DNA from: a virus
IMG/VR virus record: IMGVR_UViG_3300009497_000036
Span: 1-26,495 of that record
DNA: 26,495 nt
Strand: one strand, 5' to 3'
Positions 9,300 through 26,199 of the stretch are shown here, piece by piece; position 1 is the stretch's first letter, and each line of letters starts with the position of its first letter. The notes under the pieces are model-generated. The model saw only the letters and a list, made by a program, of their open reading frames with translations. It was not told where the DNA came from and ran no database searches. The translations under genes and the position numbers were made by a program.

Positions 9300-10403
9300 A
9301 TGCCTTTATTCACAGGAACACAACAGCAATATTACAACAACGCAATTCAGTTTACGGTAGATTCTACTATAAACTCAAACAGTTATGTTACATTAACGTT
9401 TAGCCCTTTACCAACAGTTGAAGGTGATTTTGATGTATTTATTAACGGAGATCAATTAAACGAAAGTTTATATTCATATAACAGCTCTAATGGTAGAGTT
9501 ACATTTGTGTCTAGTGCTAATCCTGCTGTTGGTGCGGTTGTAATAGTTAAACAAAGATCACTAGAGGAGAGTTTAGGTAATTACGAGCATATAACGTTAA
9601 AAGATATTGTTCAAAATTTCATAATAACATATGTAGGTGAAGACAAGCTTTTGCCAAAAGCAAGAAGAACAGATGTAATGTTTCACGCTCAAAGAGGTAT
9701 TCAAGAGTTAAACTACGATACATTAAGATGTGAAAAATCACAAGAAATAGAAATACCACCATCTCTTAAAATGAAGTTACCTCACGATTATGTTAATTAC
9801 GTTAAGGTAAGCTGGAGAGATAGCTCTGGTATTGAAAGAATAATATATCCTGCTTATAAAACAGGTAACCCAACCGCGATACTTCAAAGCGATGATTTTG
9901 AATATGTTTTTACAGACGGTGGTGAAATATTACAATCATTTGAATCAGAAACTTGGAAACAATTTAAATTAACAAGCTCTTCAAATACTTCAGACAACCC
10001 TAGAGATGATGATCAATACGACGCTACTTTAGCACAAGGTAGGAGATATGGTTTAACACCTTCTTACGCGCAAGCAAATGGTGTATATTACATAGATCAC
10101 GCTAAAGGTTTTATACATTTTAGCTCTGATTTAAATGATAAAATAATAACACTAAAATATATAAGTGATGGATTAGCTGTTGATGGAGATTCAGTTGTAC
10201 ATAAATTTGCTGAAGATGCAATATACAAATACATGATACACGCTATGTTAGCGGCTAGAACATTAGTTCCTGAGTATTTAGTAGCAAGATTTAAAAAAGA
10301 AAAGTTTGCCGCTATAAGAAAAGCAAAAATAAGATTAAGTAATATAAAAGCTGAAGAAATTTCTCAAGTATTAAGAAATAAATCTAAGCAAATAAAACAC
10401 TAA
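9300..10403 (+). CDS. Second connector/tail ring protein with extra N-terminal beta domain
   Basis: This 367-residue protein has two parts. Residues 1-95 are a beta-rich module with the phrase LTFSPLP at 32-38 and DFDVFINGDQL, of a type found on phage fibre and tail proteins. From about residue 100 (LKDIVQNFIITYVGEDKL, then RRTDVMFHAQRGIQELNYD) the sequence follows a pattern I recall from connector/tail-tube proteins of crAss-like and marine phages, with IPPSLKMKLPHDYVNYVKVSW at 152-172 and a helical, basic C-terminus. It probably forms a ring between the upper connector and the tail muzzle. The gene sits 6 nt after one connector gene and 5 nt before the muzzle-like gene. Confidence 0.72.
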   Translation: MPLFTGTQQQYYNNAIQFTVDSTINSNSYVTLTFSPLPTVEGDFDVFINGDQLNESLYSYNSSNGRVTFVSSANPAVGAVVIVKQRSLEESLGNYEHITLKDIVQNFIITYVGEDKLLPKARRTDVMFHAQRGIQELNYDTLRCEKSQEIEIPPSLKMKLPHDYVNYVKVSWRDSSGIERIIYPAYKTGNPTAILQSDDFEYVFTDGGEILQSFESETWKQFKLTSSSNTSDNPRDDDQYDATLAQGRRYGLTPSYAQANGVYYIDHAKGFIHFSSDLNDKIITLKYISDGLAVDGDSVVHKFAEDAIYKYMIHAMLAARTLVPEYLVARFKKEKFAAIRKAKIRLSNIKAEEISQVLRNKSKQIKH

Positions 10404-10408
10404 CACAT

Positions 10409-13400
10409 ATGCCAGATATTAAACATCACTTCCGTTTAGGTAAAATGAATAAAGACCTGGACGAAAGATTAGTACCTAATGGAGAGTACAGAGACGCTCT
10501 TAACATTGAGATTTCTACATCTGAAGGTAGCAATGTTGGTAGTGTTCAAAACATTAAAGGTACAACGCAAATATTAGGTAAAGTGTATGACTCGAATAAA
10601 AAAGTTATAACTGATAATTGGAATACAGATAGCTTTGGTTTAACTAACGCTATTTGTGTTGGTACTAAACTAAATAACGAGCACGATAGAATATACTGGT
10701 TTATAAAAGCTGACGAAGCCGATTGCATAGCCGAGTATGATGACGCTAGCGGTGTAATATCACCGGTGTTGGTAGATACAAATAACATACTTGATTTTAA
10801 AGCAAGTACATACATAACAGGTATAAACGTTCTAGATGGTATGTTAATGTGGACGGATGGTGAAAAAGAACCTAAAAAAATAGATATAAGTGTTTTTAAA
10901 TCTGGTTGTAGTTCTGATTTTACAACACACACTAAATACACTGGTCAAATAATAGCTTCTTCAGATCTAGCTTCTTCTTCTAGTTTTACAGAAGAACATA
11001 TAACGGTAGCTAAACAAGCGCCGATGGGTAAACCAACACTAGTAATGAGCTCTTCTACAAGAGGTGGTATTGGTACAGGTACATCTACAGTTGTTATAAG
11101 TAATGCTGTTAATACAACTTTCACAGATACAGAAGGTGTTGCTAAAGACGCTGGGACTGTTTTAAACTTAACTTTTTCACCACTACCAAATTGGCAAGCA
11201 GGTGATATAATAACTTGTACGTCTATATATGAAGAATTAGGACAACAAGAAAATCTTGAAATAAAACTATTAATAAATAGTATAAGTGCATCTAACGTTT
11301 TTAATTGTACAATACAAAGTATACCAGTTGAAATACCTTATGTACCATTAACATGGGAAGCTATACTAAGTGAAGAGGGTGTGCTTTTTGAAAAGAAATT
11401 TGTAAGCTTTGCTTATAGATGGAAATATTACTCTGGTGAATATTCTACGTTTTCACCTTTTAGCGAATTAGCTTTCTTACCTGACACTTTTGAATATTTA
11501 TCTACCAACGGTTATAACGATGGTATGATAAACAACTTAAGACAATTATCAATAAACATAACAGAATCAAGACCTATTGACGTAGAAGAGGTTGATATAC
11601 TATATAAAGAGACAAACAATAGTAATGTATATGTCGTAGACACGCTTAAGTACGCTTCTGATGGCACTTTTCCAACAGAGTATAAGTTAGAGTCAGAAAT
11701 AATAAGTAAAGTTGTAGAGTCTAATCAAACACTTCGCCCTTGGGACAACGTTCCAAGAAAAGCTACCGCTCAAGAGGTTACAGCAAATAGACTTATATAC
11801 GCTAACTACTTACAAAACTACGATATACCTGATTTTAACTTACCGAATATCAGCATGAGCATTTCACAAGCTGCTATTACAACGGTTAAAGAACCTCAGT
11901 TATCAATAAAATCACTTAGAACTTATCAAGTTGGTGTTGTTTATTTAGATAAATACAACAGACAATCACCTGTTTTTACTAGTGCAAACGCTTCTAAGCA
12001 AACAAGTAAAGATTACGCTAAAACAGTAAATAGCATAAATGTTAGTTTAAGTAATCAACCACCAGACTGGGCTACGCATTTTAAATACTACATAAAAGAA
12101 ACTTCTAATGAATATTACAATTTAGCTATGGATAGATATTATCTAGCTGAAGATGGTAATGTTTGGTTAAGCTTTCCTTCATCTGAAAGAAACAAAGTAG
12201 ATGAAGAGACTTATTTAATATTAAAGAAAAAACATGACTCTGATGATTTTGTTGCAACAAAATCTAGATATAAAATACTAGATATATCTAACGATGCACC
12301 TGATTTTTTAAAGTTAAAAGAAAGAGCCATAGCAACTGGTGATGTAGAAGCTAGAACTTCAGGTATACCTCAAATAGGTAGTGTGTCGTTTGAGTTTAGA
12401 GGTCCAAATCCTCAAACTAATCCTAGCTTTGGTGAAGGTTTTTCATCAGACGCTGTTATACAAATTGCTAATGGTGGTGTTAAATCAGATAAATACAAGG
12501 TTGTTAGTGGTGGTCCAACTGGTGATACAGACGATACAGGATCAAATGATCAAAAAGAACATATATATAAAGTAACTTTAGAAGAACCTATTAAAGCTGG
12601 TGATACTATGGTTTCTAGTATATCCGCTGGTGATAGCTTTGAAATTGTATTATTTGAAGAAAAATTTGAAAGAAAAGCTGAGTTTTACGGTAGATTTTTT
12701 GTAAAAATAAATAGAGATAGTAATTTTGATACTAATATTATAGCTTCTTTTCCAGAAGAAGATGAGCAATTTGGTATAATAGAATCTAGAACTATTTTTG
12801 GTAACGCACAAAACACGGGTGCTGGCTCTGATAAACAAGAGGCTTCTTGGTTTGATACAGCAGATAGAAGACAAAGTAGATGGGTTACACAAGCAAATAA
12901 TGGCCATCCAAAGCTTGGTCAAAAGAAAATGACGTTTTATTTTTGCGGATCACCAAAAAGTAGATCAACATCATTTGATAAATCAAACACTATAAATAAC
13001 TTTTTAAAATTAATAGAACTACAAGGTACTCTTTTTAGATTTAAAGGTAGTCAATCTGATGCGTTAAGTCCAATATATGAAATAACTAAAAACGCACAAG
13101 AAGATAGAGGGTATAGATATAGAAGAACATCTGGAAAAAGACATCAATCAGCAAAAAGAAGACAATACAACTTAGAGTTTAAAAAGAAAGACAGTACTGA
13201 TGGTTATACTGATCCTTTTAGATATCCAACTAGCGGTAATCCAACTAATTATATTAGTGAAATACAAATAATGCAAAATGTTGTTAGTGCTGATGTAGAA
13301 GTTTTAACATCTAGTAATCCAGCAATTTGGGAAACAGAACCTAAGGAATCAGCTGAGTTAGATATTTATTACGAAACTGGTTTGTCTAGACCAATATCAC

Positions 13401-16400
13401 AACATGGTTCAGCACATGTTTTAGACTTTAAAAATTGTTATTCGTTTGGCAATGGCGTTGAGTCTGATAGAATAAACGACGATTATAACGCACCGCGCAT
13501 AGGTAAAGGTGTTAAGGTTTCTGCTGTTTTAGACGAACCTTATAAAGAAGAAAGAAGAAAGAATGGTTTAATATACTCAGGTATATTTAATTCAACTAGT
13601 GGTATTAATAGGCTTAATCAATTTATACAAGGTGAAGCTATAACTAAAGACTTAAATCCTCATTATGGTGGTATACAAAAGTTACACGCTAGAAATACAG
13701 ACTTAATAGTACTGTGCGAAGATAAGTGTTTAAAAGTTTTAGCTAATAAAGACGCAATATTTGAAGCAAACGGCAACCCACAATTAACAGCTACTAATAA
13801 AGTTTTAGGGCAAGCAGTACCTTTTATAGGTGAATACGGTATATCAAAAAACCCAGAGTCTTTTGCTTCATATGCTTATAGGTGTTATTTTACAGATAAA
13901 TCAAGAGGCGCTGTTATTAGATTGTCAAGAGATGGTTTAACGGCTATATCAGATGCTGGTATGGAAGATTTCTTTAAAGATACTTTACCAGGTTCAACAT
14001 TAATACTAGGTAGTTACGATGGCAGTAAAGGTTTATACAATTTAACTTTAGATGGTCAAACAGTTTCTTTTGATGAAAAAGTAAAAGGTTTCCCTAGTTT
14101 TAAATCTTTTGTACCTGAGGGTGCTTTGTCTTTAAACAACAAATACTATTCTTTTAAAACAGGCGAATTATTTGTACATGAAAATGATATTAGAAATAAT
14201 TTTTATGGAGTACAGTATGAATCATCTGTTACTCTTTTAATAAATGAAATGCCAGAAACTATTAAAGGTTTTAAAACATTAAACTATGGTGGATCCTTAT
14301 CAAGAGTTTATACAAATGATTATGACAATGCTACCTCTACTAATACTAAGGGTTGGTACTGTGATCATATACACACGGACACTCAACAAGGTTTTATAAA
14401 AGAGTTCAAGAAAAAAGAAGGTAGGTTTTATAATCACATTAAAGGTGAAGCTACAACGTTAGAGAATTTAGATTCAAAAGAATTTAACGTACAAGGTATA
14501 GGTCAATTAACAGCTATATCTGGTGATCTAGCTCTTAGTGATAAAACAGTTACAGTTAATTTAACTGGTATAGCTAATACAACAAACCCAGGAGCTACGT
14601 TCGACGTTGAAGTTGGTACAGAAATACATAGCACTAATTCTAGTGTAACAATACTAATAACACCTGACACAGGTTCTACATTAACGGCTAGTGATTTAAG
14701 CGTAAGCTCTACTGGCGCTAACGTTGATAGTGTTAGTTTTGCACAAAGTGGTTTAAATGTAATTGCTACGGTAAACTTTACAGATGGTGTTAACATGCCG
14801 TCTAGTAACTTAGCTATTAATTTAGCTGTAACAGGTGATGGGGTTTTAAATAAATACAAGTTAGAAAACTTAGCTATAATAGATCAAAGTGACGGCAACA
14901 TAACACAAACAGTTAGTTATGCTAGTTCAGGAAGCAACGAAACAGCAAATCCAAGTGGTAATCAACTGGGTTATCAAGCTAACTACACTACACAAAACAC
15001 AGTAGCTACTGTTACTATAGATTTAGCTACAGGTTATAACTTTAACGAACAGCCTAGCTTTAAAATAACAGTAGAGGACAATGATCCTGAAAGCTATTAT
15101 GTTATAACACATCAAGATAAAGATGTTAGTGACAATAATATAACTATTGGTGTTGGTGGTAAAGTTTTAGCTGATGTAGACAAAAGAGTGTATACTGTAG
15201 CTTATAAATTCCCTGCACAAGATACAAATAAAAACGAAATAATATTCCACAGTAAGTCTGTATTGGAAAATGCTGCTGATGTAAACAAAATAAGTGGATA
15301 TGATTTAGTTGGTGGTGACACCGTGGGTAGATTTGCTCAAACAAAAGAATTAAAAATATTTGGAGCTATAGGTGCTGACTTTAGAGTTAAAAACTTTACA
15401 ACATCAACAGCTAGTACATCGGGATCTAGCACAACTTTAACTTTAACAGCTGTAAACAACGACATTAAAGTAGGTATGTTGGTTACTGGTACTGGCATAA
15501 GTGGTACTGTAACTGTGGCCGGTGTAAATGGCACGTCTATAACATTAAGCACAGCACAAACAATTAGTAGTACTACTATAACATTTTCTGAATGGTGGAA
15601 TGGAACAACGTTTGTTGGATCTGAGACTGATTTAGAAATACCTTCGACTGGGTTTTCTTTAGTATCAATACCTTTCTTTGAAACTACTGTTTCTAAAAGA
15701 TATTATATACTTATTGAAGCTATAAGTCCAACAACTTTGCTACCTATAACACCATCAAGCACTGGAGATCCTGTTTTACAAGGAAATGTATACAGCTCTT
15801 CTAATGTTGTTCAAAACCCATTTTACATAAATCAACTTGCGAATGTAGACTTAACGCTAGGTATGGCAGCAACTGCTGATTTCACTGTAACATCTAGTGA
15901 TATTACAAAAACATATATAGCTAATTTGCACACAGACGAAGACTCTGACGTTGCTAGTTTTAGCTTAAGCTTAACAGCAACAGCTACTGGAAATATTACA
16001 AAATTAAGAGATCCAGAAATAGAAGACTGGTCTAACTACTTATCTACAAATTCTGATGATATAGACTTGTTTTCAAATGGTTTTGAGTTAGACTATCAAA
16101 CACCTATAATAGCTATAAATAACACTGTATCACCTAAAACAATAAGTATAACTAGTGACATGCGTGTTAATAAATACGGTAGTGACGACTTAACATCTAA
16201 CCTAGCTATTAATAACTTTGCCTCTGTAACTGGTGGATCTGGTGGTGGTGGTTCAAGGTTATATACACCTACAGTTACTGGATCGGGTGGTGGATTAATA
16301 CTTGGTCAACACAGAGCAACGTATAACGATGGTAACGGAAATAGTGGAACAGCAGCTAAAAACGTATTAATCGGAACAGCAAGTGGAACTAACTTAACTA

Positions 16401-16648
16401 GTGGTACTGGTGTTATGTACGGTAACTTCTATAATAACGGATACAATGATATATCGTTATCAATATCAGCTACACAAGCATCAGCGTTCCATCAAGTAAG
16501 TGGATTAACAATAACTAAAACAAGTTTAGTAGGTGTTGCGCCGTCACAAGATTTACATTATAGTTGGACAGCTCAATTAGACGAACAAATTGATTCTGCG
16601 TCTGATATGACTTTCAATATAGCGGTATCACTTGCTCAAGAACCTTAA
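10409..16648 (+). CDS. Giant tail stabilisation/muzzle-like protein
   Basis: This 2079-residue protein is probably the main component of the short tail tip. The N-terminus (residues ~8-45: GKMNKDLDERLVPNGEYRDA and following) is the hallmark I recall from 'stabilisation protein' families of marine and crAss-like phages, with a P22 gp10-like role. Residues 1 to ~1365 form the core: WT-loops, many Tyr-rich strands and Gly-rich turns, ending with GRFYNHIKGE and EFNVQGIG. Residues ~1366-2079 are a Thr/Ser/Gly/Asn-rich beta extension with Ig-like strands (~1375-1480), a repeat-like GMLVTGTGISGTV segment (~1690-1703) and a Gly linker GGSGGGGS (~1943-1950) before a terminal ~130-residue domain. The extension may bind the host surface. 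No catalytic motif is seen. Confidence 0.75.
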   Translation: MPDIKHHFRLGKMNKDLDERLVPNGEYRDALNIEISTSEGSNVGSVQNIKGTTQILGKVYDSNKKVITDNWNTDSFGLTNAICVGTKLNNEHDRIYWFIKADEADCIAEYDDASGVISPVLVDTNNILDFKASTYITGINVLDGMLMWTDGEKEPKKIDISVFKSGCSSDFTTHTKYTGQIIASSDLASSSSFTEEHITVAKQAPMGKPTLVMSSSTRGGIGTGTSTVVISNAVNTTFTDTEGVAKDAGTVLNLTFSPLPNWQAGDIITCTSIYEELGQQENLEIKLLINSISASNVFNCTIQSIPVEIPYVPLTWEAILSEEGVLFEKKFVSFAYRWKYYSGEYSTFSPFSELAFLPDTFEYLSTNGYNDGMINNLRQLSINITESRPIDVEEVDILYKETNNSNVYVVDTLKYASDGTFPTEYKLESEIISKVVESNQTLRPWDNVPRKATAQEVTANRLIYANYLQNYDIPDFNLPNISMSISQAAITTVKEPQLSIKSLRTYQVGVVYLDKYNRQSPVFTSANASKQTSKDYAKTVNSINVSLSNQPPDWATHFKYYIKETSNEYYNLAMDRYYLAEDGNVWLSFPSSERNKVDEETYLILKKKHDSDDFVATKSRYKILDISNDAPDFLKLKERAIATGDVEARTSGIPQIGSVSFEFRGPNPQTNPSFGEGFSSDAVIQIANGGVKSDKYKVVSGGPTGDTDDTGSNDQKEHIYKVTLEEPIKAGDTMVSSISAGDSFEIVLFEEKFERKAEFYGRFFVKINRDSNFDTNIIASFPEEDEQFGIIESRTIFGNAQNTGAGSDKQEASWFDTADRRQSRWVTQANNGHPKLGQKKMTFYFCGSPKSRSTSFDKSNTINNFLKLIELQGTLFRFKGSQSDALSPIYEITKNAQEDRGYRYRRTSGKRHQSAKRRQYNLEFKKKDSTDGYTDPFRYPTSGNPTNYISEIQIMQNVVSADVEVLTSSNPAIWETEPKESAELDIYYETGLSRPISQHGSAHVLDFKNCYSFGNGVESDRINDDYNAPRIGKGVKVSAVLDEPYKEERRKNGLIYSGIFNSTSGINRLNQFIQGEAITKDLNPHYGGIQKLHARNTDLIVLCEDKCLKVLANKDAIFEANGNPQLTATNKVLGQAVPFIGEYGISKNPESFASYAYRCYFTDKSRGAVIRLSRDGLTAISDAGMEDFFKDTLPGSTLILGSYDGSKGLYNLTLDGQTVSFDEKVKGFPSFKSFVPEGALSLNNKYYSFKTGELFVHENDIRNNFYGVQYESSVTLLINEMPETIKGFKTLNYGGSLSRVYTNDYDNATSTNTKGWYCDHIHTDTQQGFIKEFKKKEGRFYNHIKGEATTLENLDSKEFNVQGIGQLTAISGDLALSDKTVTVNLTGIANTTNPGATFDVEVGTEIHSTNSSVTILITPDTGSTLTASDLSVSSTGANVDSVSFAQSGLNVIATVNFTDGVNMPSSNLAINLAVTGDGVLNKYKLENLAIIDQSDGNITQTVSYASSGSNETANPSGNQLGYQANYTTQNTVATVTIDLATGYNFNEQPSFKITVEDNDPESYYVITHQDKDVSDNNITIGVGGKVLADVDKRVYTVAYKFPAQDTNKNEIIFHSKSVLENAADVNKISGYDLVGGDTVGRFAQTKELKIFGAIGADFRVKNFTTSTASTSGSSTTLTLTAVNNDIKVGMLVTGTGISGTVTVAGVNGTSITLSTAQTISSTTITFSEWWNGTTFVGSETDLEIPSTGFSLVSIPFFETTVSKRYYILIEAISPTTLLPITPSSTGDPVLQGNVYSSSNVVQNPFYINQLANVDLTLGMAATADFTVTSSDITKTYIANLHTDEDSDVASFSLSLTATATGNITKLRDPEIEDWSNYLSTNSDDIDLFSNGFELDYQTPIIAINNTVSPKTISITSDMRVNKYGSDDLTSNLAINNFASVTGGSGGGGSRLYTPTVTGSGGGLILGQHRATYNDGNGNSGTAAKNVLIGTASGTNLTSGTGVMYGNFYNNGYNDISLSISATQASAFHQVSGLTITKTSLVGVAPSQDLHYSWTAQLDEQIDSASDMTFNIAVSLAQEP

Positions 16649-16658
16649 TAGATAAAAC

Positions 16659-16976
16659 ATGCCAAATATAACAATGACATTTCCGCACATACAAGATTCA
16701 GTACAAACTGGTGATACGGCTTATTATCAAAACACTAGTGGTACTATAGTGCAAATGGGTGCGGTTACAGCCGTTACTGAAACTAGCGTAAGTTGTAATA
16801 TAGGTGGTTTAGTTACTAGACCTACTTCCAGTGACTTTATACTATTTAGTAAAGATAGTAGAGGTAACACTTCCTCAATAAGAGGTTACTTTGCTGAGGT
16901 TAAAATGAAAAACGATGCTACCACAGCTTGTGAACTATATGATGTTGGTAGTGAAATCTTTGAATCAAGCAAATAA
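16659..16976 (+). CDS. Small conserved virion-associated protein, unknown function
   Basis: This 105-residue protein is predicted to be largely beta: ITMTFPHIQDSVQTGDTAYY at the start, a V-T-A-V-T-E-T-S-V strand, then SSDFILFSKDSRGN and a closing GYFAEVKMKND segment. It resembles a small family I remember from marine phage contigs next to the same large tail gene, always without an assigned function. Its size and fold would suit a minor tail or decoration protein. It is 10 nt downstream of the muzzle-like gene and 37 nt upstream of the glycine-zipper gene. No signal peptide, cysteine pair or catalytic motif is present. Confidence 0.75.
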   Translation: MPNITMTFPHIQDSVQTGDTAYYQNTSGTIVQMGAVTAVTETSVSCNIGGLVTRPTSSDFILFSKDSRGNTSSIRGYFAEVKMKNDATTACELYDVGSEIFESSK

Positions 16977-18885: not shown

Positions 18886-21800
18886 ATGGAAGAACTTTAC
18901 AGACAACTATATGCTAAATATAGTCCAGGTCTAAGTGAAGAAGAGTTGAATACTAAACTTCAATTTGCTTCTGAACAAGATCCAGAGGAGTGGATCAATG
19001 CGTTTTATCAGAAGTACACAGGCTCAGGTCCGAGCGAAGAACAATCAAACTACATATCGAATTACATGTCTGAGAACAAATCATCTACTGATTTAGTTCA
19101 ACTACCTAGCGAAGCTGAACCTAGTTGGATGCAAAAATTATTTGGTCAATCTGACTTTAGAGACGACCAAGCTACCGTAGGTGAATTTGAAGGGGAATCG
19201 TTTGACCTTTTGATAGATCCTAGTAAGTATACTAAAAAAGATTTAGAAGCTTACGTTAAACTTAGAGATGAATATAACAAAGTAGGTCCTAGTAAAGACA
19301 TGCAGTTATATACTAAGAATTATGAAGAAAACTTAAAACAATACGGTGATAAAGCTTCAAATCTTCAAGAGATGTGGGCTGGTTTAAAAGCTGTTGGAAG
19401 CACTGTTTCACTAAAAAATCCATTTGGAGCTATAGATGATATAGCTGTTGATTCTTTTTTAAGACCAGTAAGAGTAATGTATGGTTCTGAGCAAGTTGAA
19501 AAAGTTATTGGAGGTACTACCGTTGCAGCGGGTGCATCTAAAAAAGGTAAACTTCCAGCAAAACTTCTTAGAGGTTTAGGTGGTGGTTGGGCAGTTGCTC
19601 AAGGATCTGGTGATTCAGCTTTGCAATTACATACTTTAATAGCGGAAGAGTTAGGCGATGACTACACAGCGGAACAATTAGAATCTTTGTTGGGTGATGA
19701 AGAAGCATTTATGAAAATGAGAAGATCTGCGGCAATTAAAGGTGGAACAACAGCTTTAGTAGATTTTGCATTTATGAAATTAAGTATGGGTGCTGGAAAA
19801 GGAATTAACAAGTCTTTAGCAAGAGCAAAAGTACCTGGGTTTGTAAGAAAACCAGCTGCAGTTATTGGTGCTATGCAGGTAGAAGGTGTTGGTGGAGCAA
19901 CGGCTGAAGGAGCTGGTCAAGTTTTTACTAACCTAAGTGAGCAAGATAGAAAAACAGGTGAAATGGATCTTGGCAAAGCGGTTAAGGATGTTGATGGTGG
20001 TGAGCTAGTTATGGAATATTTTGCTGAACAATTATTCGGTGGAATAACCGGTGTAGCTGGTGTAAGAAAAGGTGTTGGTTCATACAGTATAAATGGTAAT
20101 CCTCATAATGAATCTGATTTTAGAGCTATAATGGACGGTATGAGTGATGAAGATATAGCTAAAGTATCTTTTGATATTAAAAATGATGATACTACCGCTG
20201 AATTATTTGAAAGTAGAAGAAAAGATGGTTTTATAAAAAACAACTTAGATACCAGGGTTACTGAAGAAGGTGATAGAACAAAACTTTTTGAATTAGAAAA
20301 AGAATTACAAGAGCTAGAGTCAAAGGGTTCAGTAACACAATCTCAAAAAAATGAAATAAGTAATAAAAAATCTGAAATAAAAGATATAACTAATACTTAT
20401 TTTGAAAAAAATAAAAGTTTAGAAGAAAATAAAGAAATCACAAACCAACAAGTATTAAAAAAAGCGGTTGGATCAGACATAGCTGAAGCTATGGGTGGTA
20501 AACAAGAGGTGCTTCAATACGATCAAGTTGTAGAAAGATATGGAGAAGATGCTGGTAGGCAAGCTGGTTTTATAGATCCTAAAACTGGTAAAGTTATTGT
20601 TAATAAAACTGTAGCAATTGACGGTGAAGGTAATCTTAACGTTGCCGGTCATGAGTTTATACATCAAGCATTGAACGCTAGGTTAAATGGAAAAGACAAA
20701 CAAGCTAGTGAAGCTGCACAAAAAGCTATAGAAAGCTTTAAACAAAAGATGGCTAAAGACAATGCAGATATTCATGCGATGGTTTTAGATAACTTCAAAA
20801 AACTAAACTACAGTAATGAAGAGGTTACTGGTGTAAATGCAGATGAGTATTTAGCTCAACTATCAGACTTAATGTCTAAAGACAAAAGTATAGCTAGAAA
20901 AATACAAGGTAAAGGTAGAATAGAATCTTTTATAGATAGTGTTAAAGATCTTATATCAGATACGTTAGGTATACCAAAAGCAGAGCTTAACTTTAAAACG
21001 GCAGATGATGTTACAAACTTCATGATAGCCCACAACAAAGCTTTTACTAATAAAAAAGCCGACACAAGGTTTAGAAAATTTACTAGTGAAAAAGTAGCTT
21101 CGACAGGTAAGAGAAAATTTAGTAAAGTAAATTTAGATCAAGCTGCGGATCCTGGTCCTATAATAGATGCTTTAACAAAAGGTGCTAAAACAAAAGCTGA
21201 GTTTCAAAGTCCTAATGGTGGGTTTGGCCAAGTTTATGAAGCTATAATAAACGGAGACTTAGATAAGTTATTTGGATCCGGTCTAAATAAGCAACAAAAA
21301 GATTTAGCTAGAGAAGAACTAGCAAACAGGTTAGTTAACTACGATTCAGCAAAAACACCTAGTTTATATAAGTGGTTTGGTAGTAATATAGTATATGCTA
21401 AAAGAGAAGCTAACAAAGCTTTAGCTATAGAAGCTAAAAAAGATAGACAGACTAAAAGTATCGATCAAGCTAAGAAAAATACTGAAGGTGATTCTTTTGC
21501 TACTCAAATAGAAGACACCACAGAGTTAACACCTGATGAAATACTAGATGCTAAACTTGCTAAAGAAAGAAAAGCTAAACAAGCTCCTGTAAAAGTAAAA
21601 GAAACATTGAGAAGAAAAATGGGCTTTGAAAGAAATGGTAAAGTTCATAATAGAATTAAAAAAGCTATTAAAACAAATATTCTTAGAAAAATGATGGTTA
21701 CAAGATCAGCGTTAAAAGAAGATATAGCTACTGGTCAATACAAGAAAGGTGATAAAATAACTGAAGCTGTTGATATAACAGATTTAAGATGGCAAAAAGA

Positions 21801-24800
21801 ATTAAATAAAAACTTAGGTTTTTATCTACAAGAAACTATGTATGAAGTTATGGGTAGAAGCACTGTAGATTATACTAACTTTTTAGATAAATTTATAGTA
21901 GAAGCTTTTGACATGATGGATCAAAACAATATAAACAAAAGATATAAAGATCTTGTTGTTAAAGTTGTTGATAGACAAAGCTCAAAACAATCATCACTAG
22001 ATAAGAATGTAAAAAGTAAAACAGCTGGTAACGCTTTATTTAAAAAAGCTAATAAAACTAAAGAACAATTAGTAGATTACTTTTTAAAACGTGGTAGAAA
22101 AGAAAGTCTAGCTCAAGTATTAGGTATAGAGTTTGGTCATGATGCTACTATGGAAGTTTTAGCTGAACCAGAAATAATGAGTAAAGCTGAGCAAGTATTA
22201 GTTAACAAAGGTAATTTAAAAAACCAAGCATTAACATCCCTTATAGCTAAGCAAATAAATAGAGATCCAGAATTAAAGTTTAGTAAAGTTTTAGATTTAG
22301 ACCAGAAGGATCAATTTGTACAAAAAGGATATGATTTTATACAAGCAATTAAAAAACTTCCAACAAGTAGAAAAAACATAATAGATGTGCTACGTTTTCA
22401 GTTTCCAGAATGGAGTGACAAAACATTAGCTAGCTTTGCTACGGAAATAATTAATCCAGTAAGAAGATATTTAGATCCAAAACTTAAAAAGAAAGGTATA
22501 AAAAATGAAAAAATAGATCCTTCAACTTTTATTTTTGAAAGTTTAAATTTAAAAATAAATAAACAAAACGATAACATAAATAAAATAACTGGAAATAAAG
22601 AATCTTTTAGAGATTTGTTTTTTAATGGTGATAAGCAAGCTGATGTTAGAGAAAATCTTAAAAACTACTTTTTAGACTCTATGAGCAAAGAGGTAATTAT
22701 AGATGGTGAAAAAACTAAAGTGCCAATAACTAATGACAAAGAAGTGATAAGTGTTCTTCAAGGTTTAATGCTTCATAAATCTCACAACACTGTTGGTGGT
22801 AAAAGCTTTAAAAAAAGATACCAGTCTTATAGTAGCGCTAAAGATTTTTACGACAATACATTTGCTTTTATACCAAATGTTACTGTAGTAGGTACTAAGA
22901 CAAAGCAAGGAATGTCTTATGCAATACATTATAAAGGTGTTAAGGTTAATTTTCCTCCAGCCGTATCACAATCAACAAAACTGACAGTAAAAGGTAAAAG
23001 AGTTAATAAAACAAAAGCATGGTGGGCGGAAAACTATGATAACTATGATGAAAGTGCAAAAAGAAACTTTGATGAAGTCAATAAGTATTTAGCTTACGTA
23101 GCTAAAATAAAAGATACTAGTGTTAAAGCTATGATGATAATGTCAATGAAACAAGGTATGGGTTCTATGCTGAAGTCTGCTGCTCGTGTTGAATATCATT
23201 ACGAAGGTAATTACAAGGGTGAACTTTTGTTTGAGCATATGGTACCCACTGAAAAAGCCCTGTTTGATTTATTAAGTTTTCATTCTGGTAGTAAAAAGTA
23301 TACGCTAGATGAAATACAAAAACAATATGTTGTTGCTATTATTCCAAAAACAATGGATAACAATATAAATGTTATATTTAACCAAGATAGATTATCTAAC
23401 TTTGATTATGCTACTGATGATGCTAGTTTGTTATATTATAACCCTGCTACGTTTGGCTATACCAACATGTACTCTATGAAGTCTCTTAGTGGTAAGGGTG
23501 AAATTATAGGAGAACAGTGGGCTAAATTTAAAGGAAAAATAAATAGCAAAAAAAATCAACAAGCTTTAAATAGATTAAACAAGATACAAGATATAAGAAA
23601 TAATAACTATAAGTTTTCTAAAGCTCCTGACAACAAAGGTATGAGTATATTTGATTTTGATGATACATTAGCTCAATCAAATAGTAAAGTAGGTGTTACA
23701 ATGCCTAACGGTAAGAAAAGAAAAATTACAGCTACTGAGTTTGCTATTGAATCTGCTGACTTAGAAGCTGCCGGAGCTACATTTGATTTCAGTGAGTTTA
23801 ACAAAGTTATTGATGGTAAGAAAGGACCTTTCTTCGATCTAGCTCAACAAATAAACAGTAAGTTTGGTAGTAAAGAAATATATGTATTAACAGCAAGACC
23901 TCAAGAAGCTTCTTATGCAATACATGCTTTTCTAAAAGGTATGGGGCTAAATATACCTATAGAAAACATAACTGGTTTAGAAGATGGTAAAGCGTCTGCT
24001 AAGGCTGACTGGGTTATAGCTAAAGTAGCTGATGGTTATAATAATATTTTATTTGCTGATGATGCAATAAAAAATGTTAAAGCTGTAAAAGAAGTATTAG
24101 AAATAGCTGAGGTAAAAAATGATGTACGACAAGCAAAGATTAAATTTAGTAAAACACTAGATGAAAACTTTAACACTATATTAGAAAGAAAGTCTGGTAT
24201 TAATAAAAATGAAGAATATAGTAAAGCAGCTGGTAAAGCAGCTGGATTAGGTAAAGGTAAGTATAAATTCTGGATGCCACCTTCAGCTGAAGACTTTGTG
24301 GGTCTAATTTACAATATGCTACCTGAAGGTAAGGCTGGAGAAAAATCTTTTAAATTCTTTACACAAGCTTTAATAGATCCATACTGGGCAGGTGTAAGAT
24401 CATTAAATGCAGCTAAGCAAGCTTTAGGTAATGACTTTTATGCTTTAAAGAAAAGATTTCCAAAAGCTTTTAAATCATTATTAAAAGATGTAGGTTATAA
24501 ACAATATTCAAACGAACAAGCTATAAGGGTTTATCTATGGAATAAAGCTGGTTTTGAAATACCAGGTATGTCTAAAGTTGATATAGAAAAGTTATCTGAT
24601 ATAGTAAGAAACAATCGCAACATGAGAGGTTTTGCTGATCTTGTTGGTGCTACAACTAAACTAGAAGAAGGTTATATAAAACCTGGTCAAGACTGGGTTA
24701 GTGGTACTATAGCTTATGATTACTTTAGTATAGCTCAAAAAACAAATAGAAAAAAGTATTTAGCTAATTGGATAGAAAGAAAAAATGAAATATTCTCTGA

Positions 24801-26199
24801 AAAGAACATGAATAAAATTGAAGCTATATATGGTGAAGATTATAGAAGTGCTTTAGAAGATATATTATGGAGAATGGAAAATGGTACGAACAGAACCACC
24901 GGTAAAAACAAATTAGTTAATAGTTGGATGAATTGGGTTAATAATTCTGTTGGTGCTATAATGTTCTTTAACAGTAGATCAGCTATACTTCAGACAATAT
25001 CTATGATAAACTTTATAAATTGGTCTGATAATAATCCATTAAAAGCTGGTATGGCCTTTGCTAATCAACCACAGTTTTGGTCTGATTTTAGTATGATATT
25101 TAATTCAGACATGCTAAAACAAAGAAGAGCTGGATTACAGAGTGATGTTAACGAGGCTGAGATAGCTCAAGCTGTTGCTGGTAAAACAGATAAAGCTTCT
25201 GCAGCTATATCTTATTTATTGAAAAAAGGTTTCTTACCTACACAGATGGCAGATAGCTTCGCGATATCAATGGGTGGTGCTAGTTTTTATAGAAATAGAT
25301 TTAATACATATAAGAGTCAAGGTATGACTGAAGCACAAGCTAAAGATAAAGCTTTTGCTGATTTTGCTAAAACATCTGAAGAATCACAACAATCTGCTGA
25401 TCCTGCTTTAATATCACAACAACAAGCTGGACCGCTTGGTAGACTGATACTTGCGTTTCAAAACACACCAATGCAGTATGCAAGATTAATAAAAAAAGCC
25501 GTATTAGATCTTAAAAATGGTCGAGGAGATGTAAAGACTAATATATCCAAAATACTATATTATGGTGTATTACAGAATATAATATTTTCTACTTTACAGT
25601 CTGGTTTATTTGCATTAGCTTTTGATGATGAAGAAGATGAAGAGCTAACACAAAAACTAGAAAACAAAAAGCTAAGAGCGTTAAACACTTCTCTTGATAG
25701 TTTACTAAGAGGTGGCGGTGTATATGGCGCTGGTATATCTACTATCAAAAACATGATACTTCAATTTAATGCTCAAAATGATAAAGGTTATAGAGCAGAC
25801 CACGCTTATACAATGATTGAAGCTATTAACTTATCCCCTCCAATCGGTAGTAAGGCTAGAAAAATTTACTCAGCTACACAAACATATAAGTTTAACAAAA
25901 AGATTATACCAACAATGGGTATGGGTGTTGATAACCCAGCTTATTTAGCTATAGCCAATATAGTATCTGCTACTACAAACGTACCTTTAGATAGAGCTAT
26001 AATGAAAATAAACAACTTAAGAGCCACTGCTGATTCACAAAATCAAGCTTGGCAAAGAGTTGCCACGTTTTTAGGTTGGAATACTTGGGATGTTGGTGTT
26101 AAGAATAAAGCTGTTGAAAAAGCTAAAGCTAAAAGCAAAAGAAAAAGTAAATCAAAAAGTAACAAGGATATACAAAGACTATTAAACAAAAGAAAATAA
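18886..26199 (+). CDS. Giant modular ejection protein: HExxH peptidase-like, HAD phosphatase, polyvalent C-terminus
   Basis: This 2437-residue protein probably enters the host with the DNA. Residues ~170-410 are Gly/Ala-rich helices. H589-E-F-I-H593 is an HExxH zinc-peptidase motif with E654 as a possible third ligand. Residues ~805-885 loosely resemble sigma-70 region 2 (YDSAKTPSLYKWF at 819-831, later FATQIED). Residues ~1420-1475 include an EHMVP motif at 1450-1454. Residues 1586-1750 are a HAD phosphatase with D1590-F-D1592-D-T1594, VLTARP at 1667-1672 and FADD ending D1725-D1726. The C-terminal ~680 residues resemble 'large polyvalent protein' tails, with a hydrophobic helix near 2224-2245, PLDRAIMKINNL and a Lys-rich end. 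K-F-S-K occurs at 744, 1131, 1576 and 1753, each between modules. It occupies the T7 gp16-like position. The HAD call is firm; the sigma resemblance is weak. Confidence 0.85.
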   Translation: MEELYRQLYAKYSPGLSEEELNTKLQFASEQDPEEWINAFYQKYTGSGPSEEQSNYISNYMSENKSSTDLVQLPSEAEPSWMQKLFGQSDFRDDQATVGEFEGESFDLLIDPSKYTKKDLEAYVKLRDEYNKVGPSKDMQLYTKNYEENLKQYGDKASNLQEMWAGLKAVGSTVSLKNPFGAIDDIAVDSFLRPVRVMYGSEQVEKVIGGTTVAAGASKKGKLPAKLLRGLGGGWAVAQGSGDSALQLHTLIAEELGDDYTAEQLESLLGDEEAFMKMRRSAAIKGGTTALVDFAFMKLSMGAGKGINKSLARAKVPGFVRKPAAVIGAMQVEGVGGATAEGAGQVFTNLSEQDRKTGEMDLGKAVKDVDGGELVMEYFAEQLFGGITGVAGVRKGVGSYSINGNPHNESDFRAIMDGMSDEDIAKVSFDIKNDDTTAELFESRRKDGFIKNNLDTRVTEEGDRTKLFELEKELQELESKGSVTQSQKNEISNKKSEIKDITNTYFEKNKSLEENKEITNQQVLKKAVGSDIAEAMGGKQEVLQYDQVVERYGEDAGRQAGFIDPKTGKVIVNKTVAIDGEGNLNVAGHEFIHQALNARLNGKDKQASEAAQKAIESFKQKMAKDNADIHAMVLDNFKKLNYSNEEVTGVNADEYLAQLSDLMSKDKSIARKIQGKGRIESFIDSVKDLISDTLGIPKAELNFKTADDVTNFMIAHNKAFTNKKADTRFRKFTSEKVASTGKRKFSKVNLDQAADPGPIIDALTKGAKTKAEFQSPNGGFGQVYEAIINGDLDKLFGSGLNKQQKDLAREELANRLVNYDSAKTPSLYKWFGSNIVYAKREANKALAIEAKKDRQTKSIDQAKKNTEGDSFATQIEDTTELTPDEILDAKLAKERKAKQAPVKVKETLRRKMGFERNGKVHNRIKKAIKTNILRKMMVTRSALKEDIATGQYKKGDKITEAVDITDLRWQKELNKNLGFYLQETMYEVMGRSTVDYTNFLDKFIVEAFDMMDQNNINKRYKDLVVKVVDRQSSKQSSLDKNVKSKTAGNALFKKANKTKEQLVDYFLKRGRKESLAQVLGIEFGHDATMEVLAEPEIMSKAEQVLVNKGNLKNQALTSLIAKQINRDPELKFSKVLDLDQKDQFVQKGYDFIQAIKKLPTSRKNIIDVLRFQFPEWSDKTLASFATEIINPVRRYLDPKLKKKGIKNEKIDPSTFIFESLNLKINKQNDNINKITGNKESFRDLFFNGDKQADVRENLKNYFLDSMSKEVIIDGEKTKVPITNDKEVISVLQGLMLHKSHNTVGGKSFKKRYQSYSSAKDFYDNTFAFIPNVTVVGTKTKQGMSYAIHYKGVKVNFPPAVSQSTKLTVKGKRVNKTKAWWAENYDNYDESAKRNFDEVNKYLAYVAKIKDTSVKAMMIMSMKQGMGSMLKSAARVEYHYEGNYKGELLFEHMVPTEKALFDLLSFHSGSKKYTLDEIQKQYVVAIIPKTMDNNINVIFNQDRLSNFDYATDDASLLYYNPATFGYTNMYSMKSLSGKGEIIGEQWAKFKGKINSKKNQQALNRLNKIQDIRNNNYKFSKAPDNKGMSIFDFDDTLAQSNSKVGVTMPNGKKRKITATEFAIESADLEAAGATFDFSEFNKVIDGKKGPFFDLAQQINSKFGSKEIYVLTARPQEASYAIHAFLKGMGLNIPIENITGLEDGKASAKADWVIAKVADGYNNILFADDAIKNVKAVKEVLEIAEVKNDVRQAKIKFSKTLDENFNTILERKSGINKNEEYSKAAGKAAGLGKGKYKFWMPPSAEDFVGLIYNMLPEGKAGEKSFKFFTQALIDPYWAGVRSLNAAKQALGNDFYALKKRFPKAFKSLLKDVGYKQYSNEQAIRVYLWNKAGFEIPGMSKVDIEKLSDIVRNNRNMRGFADLVGATTKLEEGYIKPGQDWVSGTIAYDYFSIAQKTNRKKYLANWIERKNEIFSEKNMNKIEAIYGEDYRSALEDILWRMENGTNRTTGKNKLVNSWMNWVNNSVGAIMFFNSRSAILQTISMINFINWSDNNPLKAGMAFANQPQFWSDFSMIFNSDMLKQRRAGLQSDVNEAEIAQAVAGKTDKASAAISYLLKKGFLPTQMADSFAISMGGASFYRNRFNTYKSQGMTEAQAKDKAFADFAKTSEESQQSADPALISQQQAGPLGRLILAFQNTPMQYARLIKKAVLDLKNGRGDVKTNISKILYYGVLQNIIFSTLQSGLFALAFDDEEDEELTQKLENKKLRALNTSLDSLLRGGGVYGAGISTIKNMILQFNAQNDKGYRADHAYTMIEAINLSPPIGSKARKIYSATQTYKFNKKIIPTMGMGVDNPAYLAIANIVSATTNVPLDRAIMKINNLRATADSQNQAWQRVATFLGWNTWDVGVKNKAVEKAKAKSKRKSKSKSNKDIQRLLNKRK

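What the first reader, a model, noticed from the sequence alone, without database searches (positions are those of the whole stretch)
14505..16648. ~700-residue beta-rich extension on the muzzle-like protein
The core of the protein seems to end near residue 1365. What follows is a chain of Thr/Ser/Asn/Gly-rich beta domains, a GMLVTGTGISGT repeat-type segment and a Gly linker before a terminal domain. This is the composition of adhesins and fibre tips. It may supply the receptor-binding function, since no separate tail-fibre gene is visible in the window.
Basis: inference. Interest (0 to 1): 0.5.

Follow-up and report, generated by a model that had tools for sequence, protein, structure and literature searches.

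The report
Beta-domain arm cassette on phage muzzle
The long tail on this marine phage's tail-gate ("muzzle") protein is a string of beta-sheet domains that relatives often encode as a separate neighbouring gene, wedged in front of a small last piece of the gate that has become its own gene; it is probably an exchangeable arm around the tail, not the phage's only receptor binder.

Summary
ORF 10409-16648 (2079 aa) is a crAss-type muzzle; its body ends near residue 1365, and 1366-2079 are predicted as about five beta domains, one clearly Ig-like in fold search (AlphaFold2 mean pLDDT 82). (1) In relatives, homologues of the extension are often a separate gene just downstream of the muzzle; fused and separate forms line up across the stop/start. 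(2) In several cultured relatives a ~105-aa domain follows the body directly; here it is the separate ORF 16659-16976, as in 16 of 16 readable clade members. The extension thus fills a slot that cuts the muzzle's last domain off. (3) The fused state needs at least 5 changes on a tree of bodies. The receptor-binding argument is weakened: a record 97.9% identical over 18.2 kb has a tail-fibre-like gene and an S74-like gene upstream of terminase (weak S74 match; homologue in another record over the cut-off), and these vary more than the extension. By homology to crAss001 and T7 nozzles, the muzzle C-terminus faces the rings, not the tip (inferred; my own tests could not confirm it). Best guess: accessory collar arms; adhesion unproven.

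The parts
10409..16648 (+). Muzzle protein ORF, 2079 aa (body 1-1365 plus extension 1366-2079)
   Evidence: ORF; phrog_14478 4.8e-146; a profile of clade bodies hits PDB muzzle gp44 7qok/7qol/8ckb, E 1.3e-9
14189..14443 (+). crAss_MUZ_C region of the body (residues 1261-1345)
   Evidence: PF25729 8.9e-9, above cut-off
14504..16645 (+). C-terminal extension, 714 aa; fused form of a cassette protein that is a separate gene in relatives
   Evidence: homologues; hits 6 of 23 separate cassettes directly, and 20 of 23 hit some fused extension; AF2
14534..14839 (+). beta domain D1 (residues about 1376-1477), most conserved part of the extension (0.66); holds the approximate fusion point near residue 1394
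   Evidence: boundaries read by me from strands and pLDDT; identity; junction alignment
14852..15268 (+). beta domain D2 (about 1482-1620)
   Evidence: strands and pLDDT dip at model 257-259
15281..15844 (+). Ig-like domain D3 (about 1625-1812) that carries the inserted GM unit
   Evidence: VIA-align spans model 258-447, best Z 7.5, rmsd 2.9, 93 aligned
15404..15604 (+). Inserted GMLVTGTGISGT unit (residues 1666-1732)
   Evidence: 46% gaps in bin 1681-1740; 9 of 17 members carry it, further copies in L006 and L060
15842..16228 (+). beta domain D4 (about 1812-1940)
   Evidence: strands
16232..16357 (+). Gly/Ser-rich linker (GGSGGGG at 1942-1948)
   Evidence: pLDDT under 50 at model 577-584 and 593-618; position
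16361..16645 (+). terminal beta domain D5 (about 1985-2079)
   Evidence: strands
16659..16976 (+). 105-aa ORF: detached C-terminal domain of the muzzle
   Evidence: blastp to terminal domains of Panino CDS0074 (4.7e-14), phi13:2 gp121 (3e-9), phi38:1 muzzle (2e-7), elemoF muzzle (1e-6) (12-sequence database); present in 16 of 16 readable clade members, window included

Best explanation
The extension is an exchangeable cassette protein made of beta domains, here fused in frame to the muzzle C-terminus. It sits in a slot between the muzzle body and the muzzle's own last domain; occupation of the slot has cut that last domain off as a separate 105-aa protein (insertional fission). SHOWN by sequence: the order body / extension / detached terminal domain; cassettes homologous to such extensions are free-standing genes at the same place in relatives; fused and separate forms are collinear across the stop/start; the state changes repeatedly on the tree; fibre-like genes exist in a near-identical genome. 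INFERRED: the 105-aa protein still binds the muzzle and completes its ring-joining (platform) domain in trans; the extension leaves the muzzle at its ring-facing end, giving up to six flexible arms (the muzzle is a hexamer in crAss001) around the tail below the ring barrel; the arms act as accessory, non-primary contacts (with the cell surface, the environment or the fibres) while upstream fibres do the specific recognition.
For: Of 77 loci classed by script (76 contigs; L038 and L080 are one contig), 43 have a long tail fused to the body with the terminal domain on the next ORF (EXT, phi13:2 among them although its split is elsewhere), 23 have separate ORF(s) between muzzle and terminal-domain ORF (SEP), 7 have the terminal domain contiguous (FUSED), 4 show none in the DNA held. 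20 of 23 separate cassettes hit a fused tail by blastp at E<=1e-3, two nearly end to end (L122 2-665 of 666 and L114 24-630 of 632, both against L118). In L122 the muzzle ends ...GGGGAWDSTAD, stop, then MANWTV...; in L115 the chain reads on ...GSGGAWDSTADSGNWTV.... Junctions are a stop and, 0-19 nt on, the first ATG. Tree of 71 bodies (quick method): EXT needs 9 changes, at least 5 forced by starred branches. Detached terminal domain: 16 of 16; its mean pairwise identity is 0.71, the body's 0.74, the extension's 0.51 over the same 16. Fibre-like genes. Ring-facing end: the crAss001 tip domain is an internal insertion, and ring-joining domain and propeller resemble the T7 nozzle (PMC10172136 section 9); in T7 gp12 the C-terminal domain is the platform that meets the adaptor (PMC6702177 passages).
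Against: No structure of any muzzle of this clade. My model of a natural body-plus-terminal-domain protein was poor (pLDDT 42). Three tests failed to match the terminal domain clearly to the end of gp44: HMM (no hit), profile-profile (0.3% probability), and a shuffle test (z 3.6, but other 50-aa windows score 17.2-21.6 against 22.1); the platform placement therefore rests on the body alignment and the two papers. No binding, structural or proteomic evidence for the arms. Within the window's own subclade the cassette is not exchanged: all 17 aligned members, which were found through it, keep it fused and alignable. 13 of the 23 SEP loci also have 132-365 aa of their own after the body, so fused and separate are not strict alternatives. 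G001 (65.5 kb) shows no S74 match.
Confidence: 0.55

Rival explanations
1. The extension is the main receptor-binding part of the phage.
For: Beta-domain chain with low charge and T/S/N/G-rich composition; less conserved than the core; occupants without detectable relationship in the slot of some relatives; a divergent tract (residues 1381-1560, 60 of 148 codon differences) against the near-identical record.
Against: Fibre-like genes in a near-identical genome, more variable than the extension; only sub-threshold family hits in the extension, such as a tail-tube PHROG at E 0.008; the divergent tract is rich in synonymous changes (41 of 60), so it looks recombined rather than selected; position inferred to be ring-facing.
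Confidence: 0.15
2. The extension is a docking or bracing structure: its domains hold the tail fibres or wrap the barrel, as the fibre docks of the T7 nozzle and adaptor and the Ig-like nozzle domains of SU10 do.
For: In T7 the fibre dock joins the propeller end to the platform, close to where this cassette is inferred to sit (PMC6702177 passages). SU10 nozzle proteins carry Ig-like domains that straighten on infection (PMC9509320 passages). The neighbouring ring protein also has an added N-terminal segment.
Against: The ring segment (over 50 extra residues, rough estimate) does not track fused against separate cassettes: 20 of 40 EXT and 10 of 20 SEP loci with a readable start; 0 of 6 FUSED, a small sample. 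Cassettes without detectable relationship in some relatives argue against one fixed docking surface.
Confidence: 0.25
3. Separate and fused forms are assembly or sequencing artefacts, or the ORF split has no functional meaning.
For: All wide-clade sequences are uncultured virus contigs.
Against: The separate state is shared by related contigs from different samples with clean stop-ATG junctions (7 loci: L087-L091, L093, L095) and the terminal ORF is present in 16 of 16. Cultured phi13:2 (gp120/gp121) and Panino (CDS0075/0074) are also split.
Confidence: 0.03

Closest known systems
Muzzle protein gp44 of Bacteroides phage crAss001 (PDB 7qok, 7qol, 8ckb; PF25729)
   Same: Body profile positions 76-295 align to gp44 1055-1280 (E 1.3e-9); same gene position after a ring / tail tubular protein.
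   Different: gp44 is 1371 aa without such a tail; here 714 aa follow the body and the last domain is a separate ORF.
Muzzle homologues of phi38:1 (1324 aa), elemoF (1493 aa), Gundel_1 (1386 aa)
   Same: 30-34% identity over the matched core; terminal domain related to the 105-aa ORF by blastp (phi38:1, elemoF) or by profile (Gundel_1).
   Different: Terminal domain contiguous with the body; no cassette.
phi13:2 gp120/gp121 and Panino CDS0075/CDS0074
   Same: Muzzle also split, with the terminal domain on the downstream ORF; gp120 has its own long tail.
   Different: Cut further upstream (about window residue 1204-1217 in phi13:2, 1095-1137 in Panino); phi13:2 tail unrelated to this extension at blastp E<=1e-4.
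T7 gp12 and SU10 gp17 nozzle proteins
   Same: Functional class; propeller plus platform; SU10 carries Ig-like nozzle domains (passages).
   Different: No detached platform piece is described in the passages read.
Insertional fission of mitochondrial cox2 (PMC5374615, seen in search listing only)
   Same: By its title, an insertional fission of one gene into complementary genes.
   Different: Unrelated protein and organism; here the insert is itself a coding cassette.

Membership tests
crAss-type muzzle protein | Sequence homology of the C-terminal body to gp44 / PF25729 | tested here: met
   PF25729 36.1 bits over cut-off 27; A5 profile to 7qok/7qol/8ckb E 1.3e-9
crAss-type muzzle protein | N-terminal propeller segment shared with gp44 | tested here: inconclusive
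   core profile matches gp44 7-60 at 6.2 bits only
crAss-type muzzle protein | Crass fold inserted in IG2; [quoted passage not shown]
Tail fibre / receptor-binding protein | Known fibre, lectin, depolymerase or chaperone domain in the extension | tested here: inconclusive
   only sub-threshold Pfam and PHROG hits for the extension and for 9 other cassettes scanned; fold search covers model 258-447 mainly, Ig-like, best Z 7.5
Tail fibre / receptor-binding protein | Most variable large tail component between relatives | tested here: not met
   pairwise identity in three genomes: extension 0.59-0.68; g679 0.34-0.48, g871 0.42-0.51, g713 0.42-0.48 (G003's muzzle taken from its near-copy L004; small neighbours g94, g145, g187 also vary more than the extension)
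Tail fibre / receptor-binding protein | Binds host cells | not testable with these tools
   needs experiment
Insertional gene fission | Two collinear pieces of one domain order on adjacent ORFs with an insert between | tested here: met
Insertional gene fission | The pieces complement in trans | not testable with these tools
   inferred from conservation of the 105-aa ORF

The most novel reading that the evidence does not exclude
A large marine clade of crAss-like phages builds its tail gate as a split protein: the muzzle body is completed in trans by a small detached platform piece, and the gap between them is a dedicated slot of closely spaced genes into which exchangeable beta-domain arm proteins are placed, either free or fused to the gate. 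The slot lets a phage change the surface of the gate without touching the gate itself.
Probability: 0.4. Interest if true: 0.65.

Novelty: new variant of a known kind. Interest (0 to 1): 0.5.

Why it matters
Muzzle length variation has been described as insertions into the crass and IG2 domains (PMC10172136 section 9). This shows another way: a cassette slot at the C-terminal end that detaches the muzzle's last domain and whose state has changed repeatedly. If the detached piece completes the gate in trans, it gives a direct experimental handle on how the muzzle is held to the ring barrel and how it opens, and it marks the slot as a place to look for accessory host-contact proteins in uncultured marine phages.

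Tried and rejected
Sole receptor binder by default: rejected because fibre-like genes lie upstream of terminase in a near-identical genome. Link between the cassette and the added segment on the ring protein: none seen between EXT and SEP; 0 of 6 FUSED loci have it. Repeat array for the GMLVTG unit: rejected, the string occurs once in the extension. Origin in bacterial genomes: one scan of genome contigs with A3, 38 pattern matches, no relative. Homology of the 105-aa ORF to the end of gp44: looked plausible by eye (gp44 RIRNTWAYIKL...HD against SIRGYFAEVKM...YD), but HMM, hhalign and shuffle tests do not establish it. Foldseek against the PDB gave two matches under E 0.001, both with probability under 0.3; in BFVD 12 matches under 0.001, the top three uncharacterised or unnamed, best A0A7S9SUB0 at 2e-8. 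No PDB sequence matches the extension profile at E<=0.1, nor the single full-length protein at E<=1. The model of L098 was too poor to search with. Rows dropped: near-copies L010 and L013 and the cut-off L045 from the identity table; loci that repeat earlier contigs or end before the terminal domain could be read from the 77; 6 loci with identical bodies from the tree, where 4 rows carry no state. The tree is a quick one with SH-aLRT support only; long outgroup branches make their placing unsure, and its EXT label lumps tails that are not all homologous. The survey took the best 80 of 103 relatives. Blastp E-values refer to small local databases; starts are the first ATG after a stop, chosen by script. 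Pfam and PHROG scans covered the extension and 9 other cassettes only. That a split muzzle is not described rests on searches of open-licence PMC papers; I read section 9 of PMC10172136 and passages of it, passages of PMC6702177, PMC9509320 and PMC11054128, and listings otherwise.
Full report
WHAT WAS CLAIMED. The window is a 26,495-base virus record.

THE OBSERVATION. The ORF is 2079 aa. It belongs with crAss-type muzzle proteins: phrog_14478 at 4.8e-146, PF25729 over its cut-off at residues 1261-1345, and a profile of clade bodies finds the solved muzzle gp44 in the PDB at 1.3e-9. 87 phage records match, all under 60% identity; in the 50 listed, matches stop at 1291-1452. Residues 1366-2079 alone match none of 50,697 phage records. 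The extension is richer in T, S, N and G and poor in K and R. AlphaFold2 on a 29-row alignment predicts beta domains at mean pLDDT 81.7 (pTM 0.45) with a low-confidence Gly-rich linker before the last one. Fold search mainly covers one domain (model 258-447), which is Ig-like, best Z 7.5, a level common for such models. Domain boundaries are my reading of the strands.

CONSERVATION. Over 17 full-length muzzles (window included) the core has mean pairwise identity 0.69 and the extension 0.51. The extension is alignable throughout, and its first domain (0.66) is nearly as conserved as the core. The GMLVTG unit comes and goes. The extension is not a hypervariable tip within this subclade.

THE LAST DOMAIN IS NEXT DOOR. 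In phi38:1, elemoF and Gundel_1 the body runs straight into a ~105-aa terminal domain. In the window that domain is the separate ORF 16659-16976, which starts 11 nt after the muzzle stop. Of the 17 muzzles, 16 have readable DNA beyond (L041 does not), and all 16 have this ORF 5-11 nt on, each hitting the terminal domain of at least two named phages. Its conservation (0.71) is like that of the body (0.74). So the extension lies between a protein and its own last domain.

THE EXTENSION IS A CASSETTE. A scan with the body gave 80 loci, the best of 103. I classed 77 loci (76 contigs), including five named phages and the window: 43 with a long tail fused to the body, 23 with separate ORFs between the muzzle stop and the terminal-domain ORF, 7 with the terminal domain contiguous, 4 with none found. 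The window extension itself hits 6 of 23 separate cassettes (best 7e-11); 20 of 23 hit some fused tail. In the clearest pair the separate form breaks with a stop and ATG where the fused form reads on: L122 STAD, stop, MANWTV against L115 STADSGNWTV. Some occupants show no blastp relationship to the main group (L099/L105/L112, L103, L117, L108/L110, and phi13:2, at E<=1e-4 over 60 aa or more). On a quick tree of 71 bodies the fused state needs 9 changes, at least 5 forced by starred branches. 13 of 23 separate-cassette loci also have 132-365 residues of their own after the body.

WHERE IT SITS. In crAss001 the tip domain is an internal insertion in the chain, and the propeller and ring-joining domain resemble the T7 nozzle (PMC10172136, section 9 read). 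In T7 gp12 the C-terminal domain is the platform that meets the adaptor, and the fibre dock joins the propeller to it (PMC6702177, passages). By this homology the extension leaves the muzzle at the ring-facing end. I could not confirm it: the model of a natural body-plus-terminal-domain protein was poor, and sequence tests of the terminal domain against the gp44 end were negative or weak.

THE FIBRES. A 53-kb record with 97.9% nt identity over 18.2 kb (86-94% in three further pieces), which I take as the same species, carries upstream of terminase on the same strand a 679-aa protein with a 65-residue tail-fibre PHROG match, an 871-aa Thr/Ser-rich protein with an S74-like end and a 713-aa Thr/Ser-rich protein. 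S74 was sought in six records, three of them under 30 kb: 2 of 6 matched at E<=0.001, 1 over the family cut-off, and the 65.5-kb G001 had none; a direct Pfam scan shows the domain in the G003 protein only. In three genomes these proteins are more variable than the extension, as are some small neighbours. phi38:1 has a protein annotated as carrying the endosialidase chaperone in the corresponding place.

READING. The extension is best seen as an accessory arm protein fused to the gate. Whether it sticks to cells, braces the tail or holds fibres is open; I put accessory surface contact first, docking second, main receptor binding third.

WITHIN-SPECIES NOTE. Between the window and the near-identical record, 60 of 148 codon differences in the muzzle gene lie in residues 1381-1560; 41 of the 60 are synonymous. 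That suggests a recombined segment.

KNOWN OR NEW. A muzzle is known; a muzzle with a detached last domain and a cassette slot was not found in the papers searched. I file it as a new variant of a known kind.

Noticed in passing
window 9300-10403: The ring protein before the muzzle has about 76-88 extra N-terminal residues that phi38:1, elemoF and the relative L028 lack; presence is patchy and does not track fused against separate cassettes.
   Followed up: partly
window 15404-15604; L006, L060, L092, L122, L123: A 40-65-residue unit (GMxVTGTGIxGTVTV...TLS...ITF) or weaker relatives of it lie at different places in different cassettes, sometimes twice.
   Followed up: partly
window 14549-15088 against L007: Divergent tract between two near-identical viruses (41 synonymous and 19 nonsynonymous codon changes in 180 codons), probably recombination.
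   Followed up: partly
L023 3162-5303 and 5866-8481 (minus strand): Fibre-like proteins with long Thr/Ser-rich repeats (TTTTFNTSTTT type) upstream of terminase; nature of the repeat not studied.
   Followed up: no
L018 12001-17571 (phi13:2 gp120/gp121); L019 11587-15500 (Panino): Cultured relatives also have split muzzles, cut at other points further upstream.
   Followed up: partly
L096, L099, L105, L109, L117: Ring-protein ORFs of 520-731 aa, far longer than the 270-390 of many others, suggesting large insertions there too.
   Followed up: no
window 18886-26199: 2437-aa ORF without Pfam match; the last large structural ORF of the cluster varies widely in length in relatives (1691 aa in phi38:1, 3694 aa in elemoF).
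   Followed up: no
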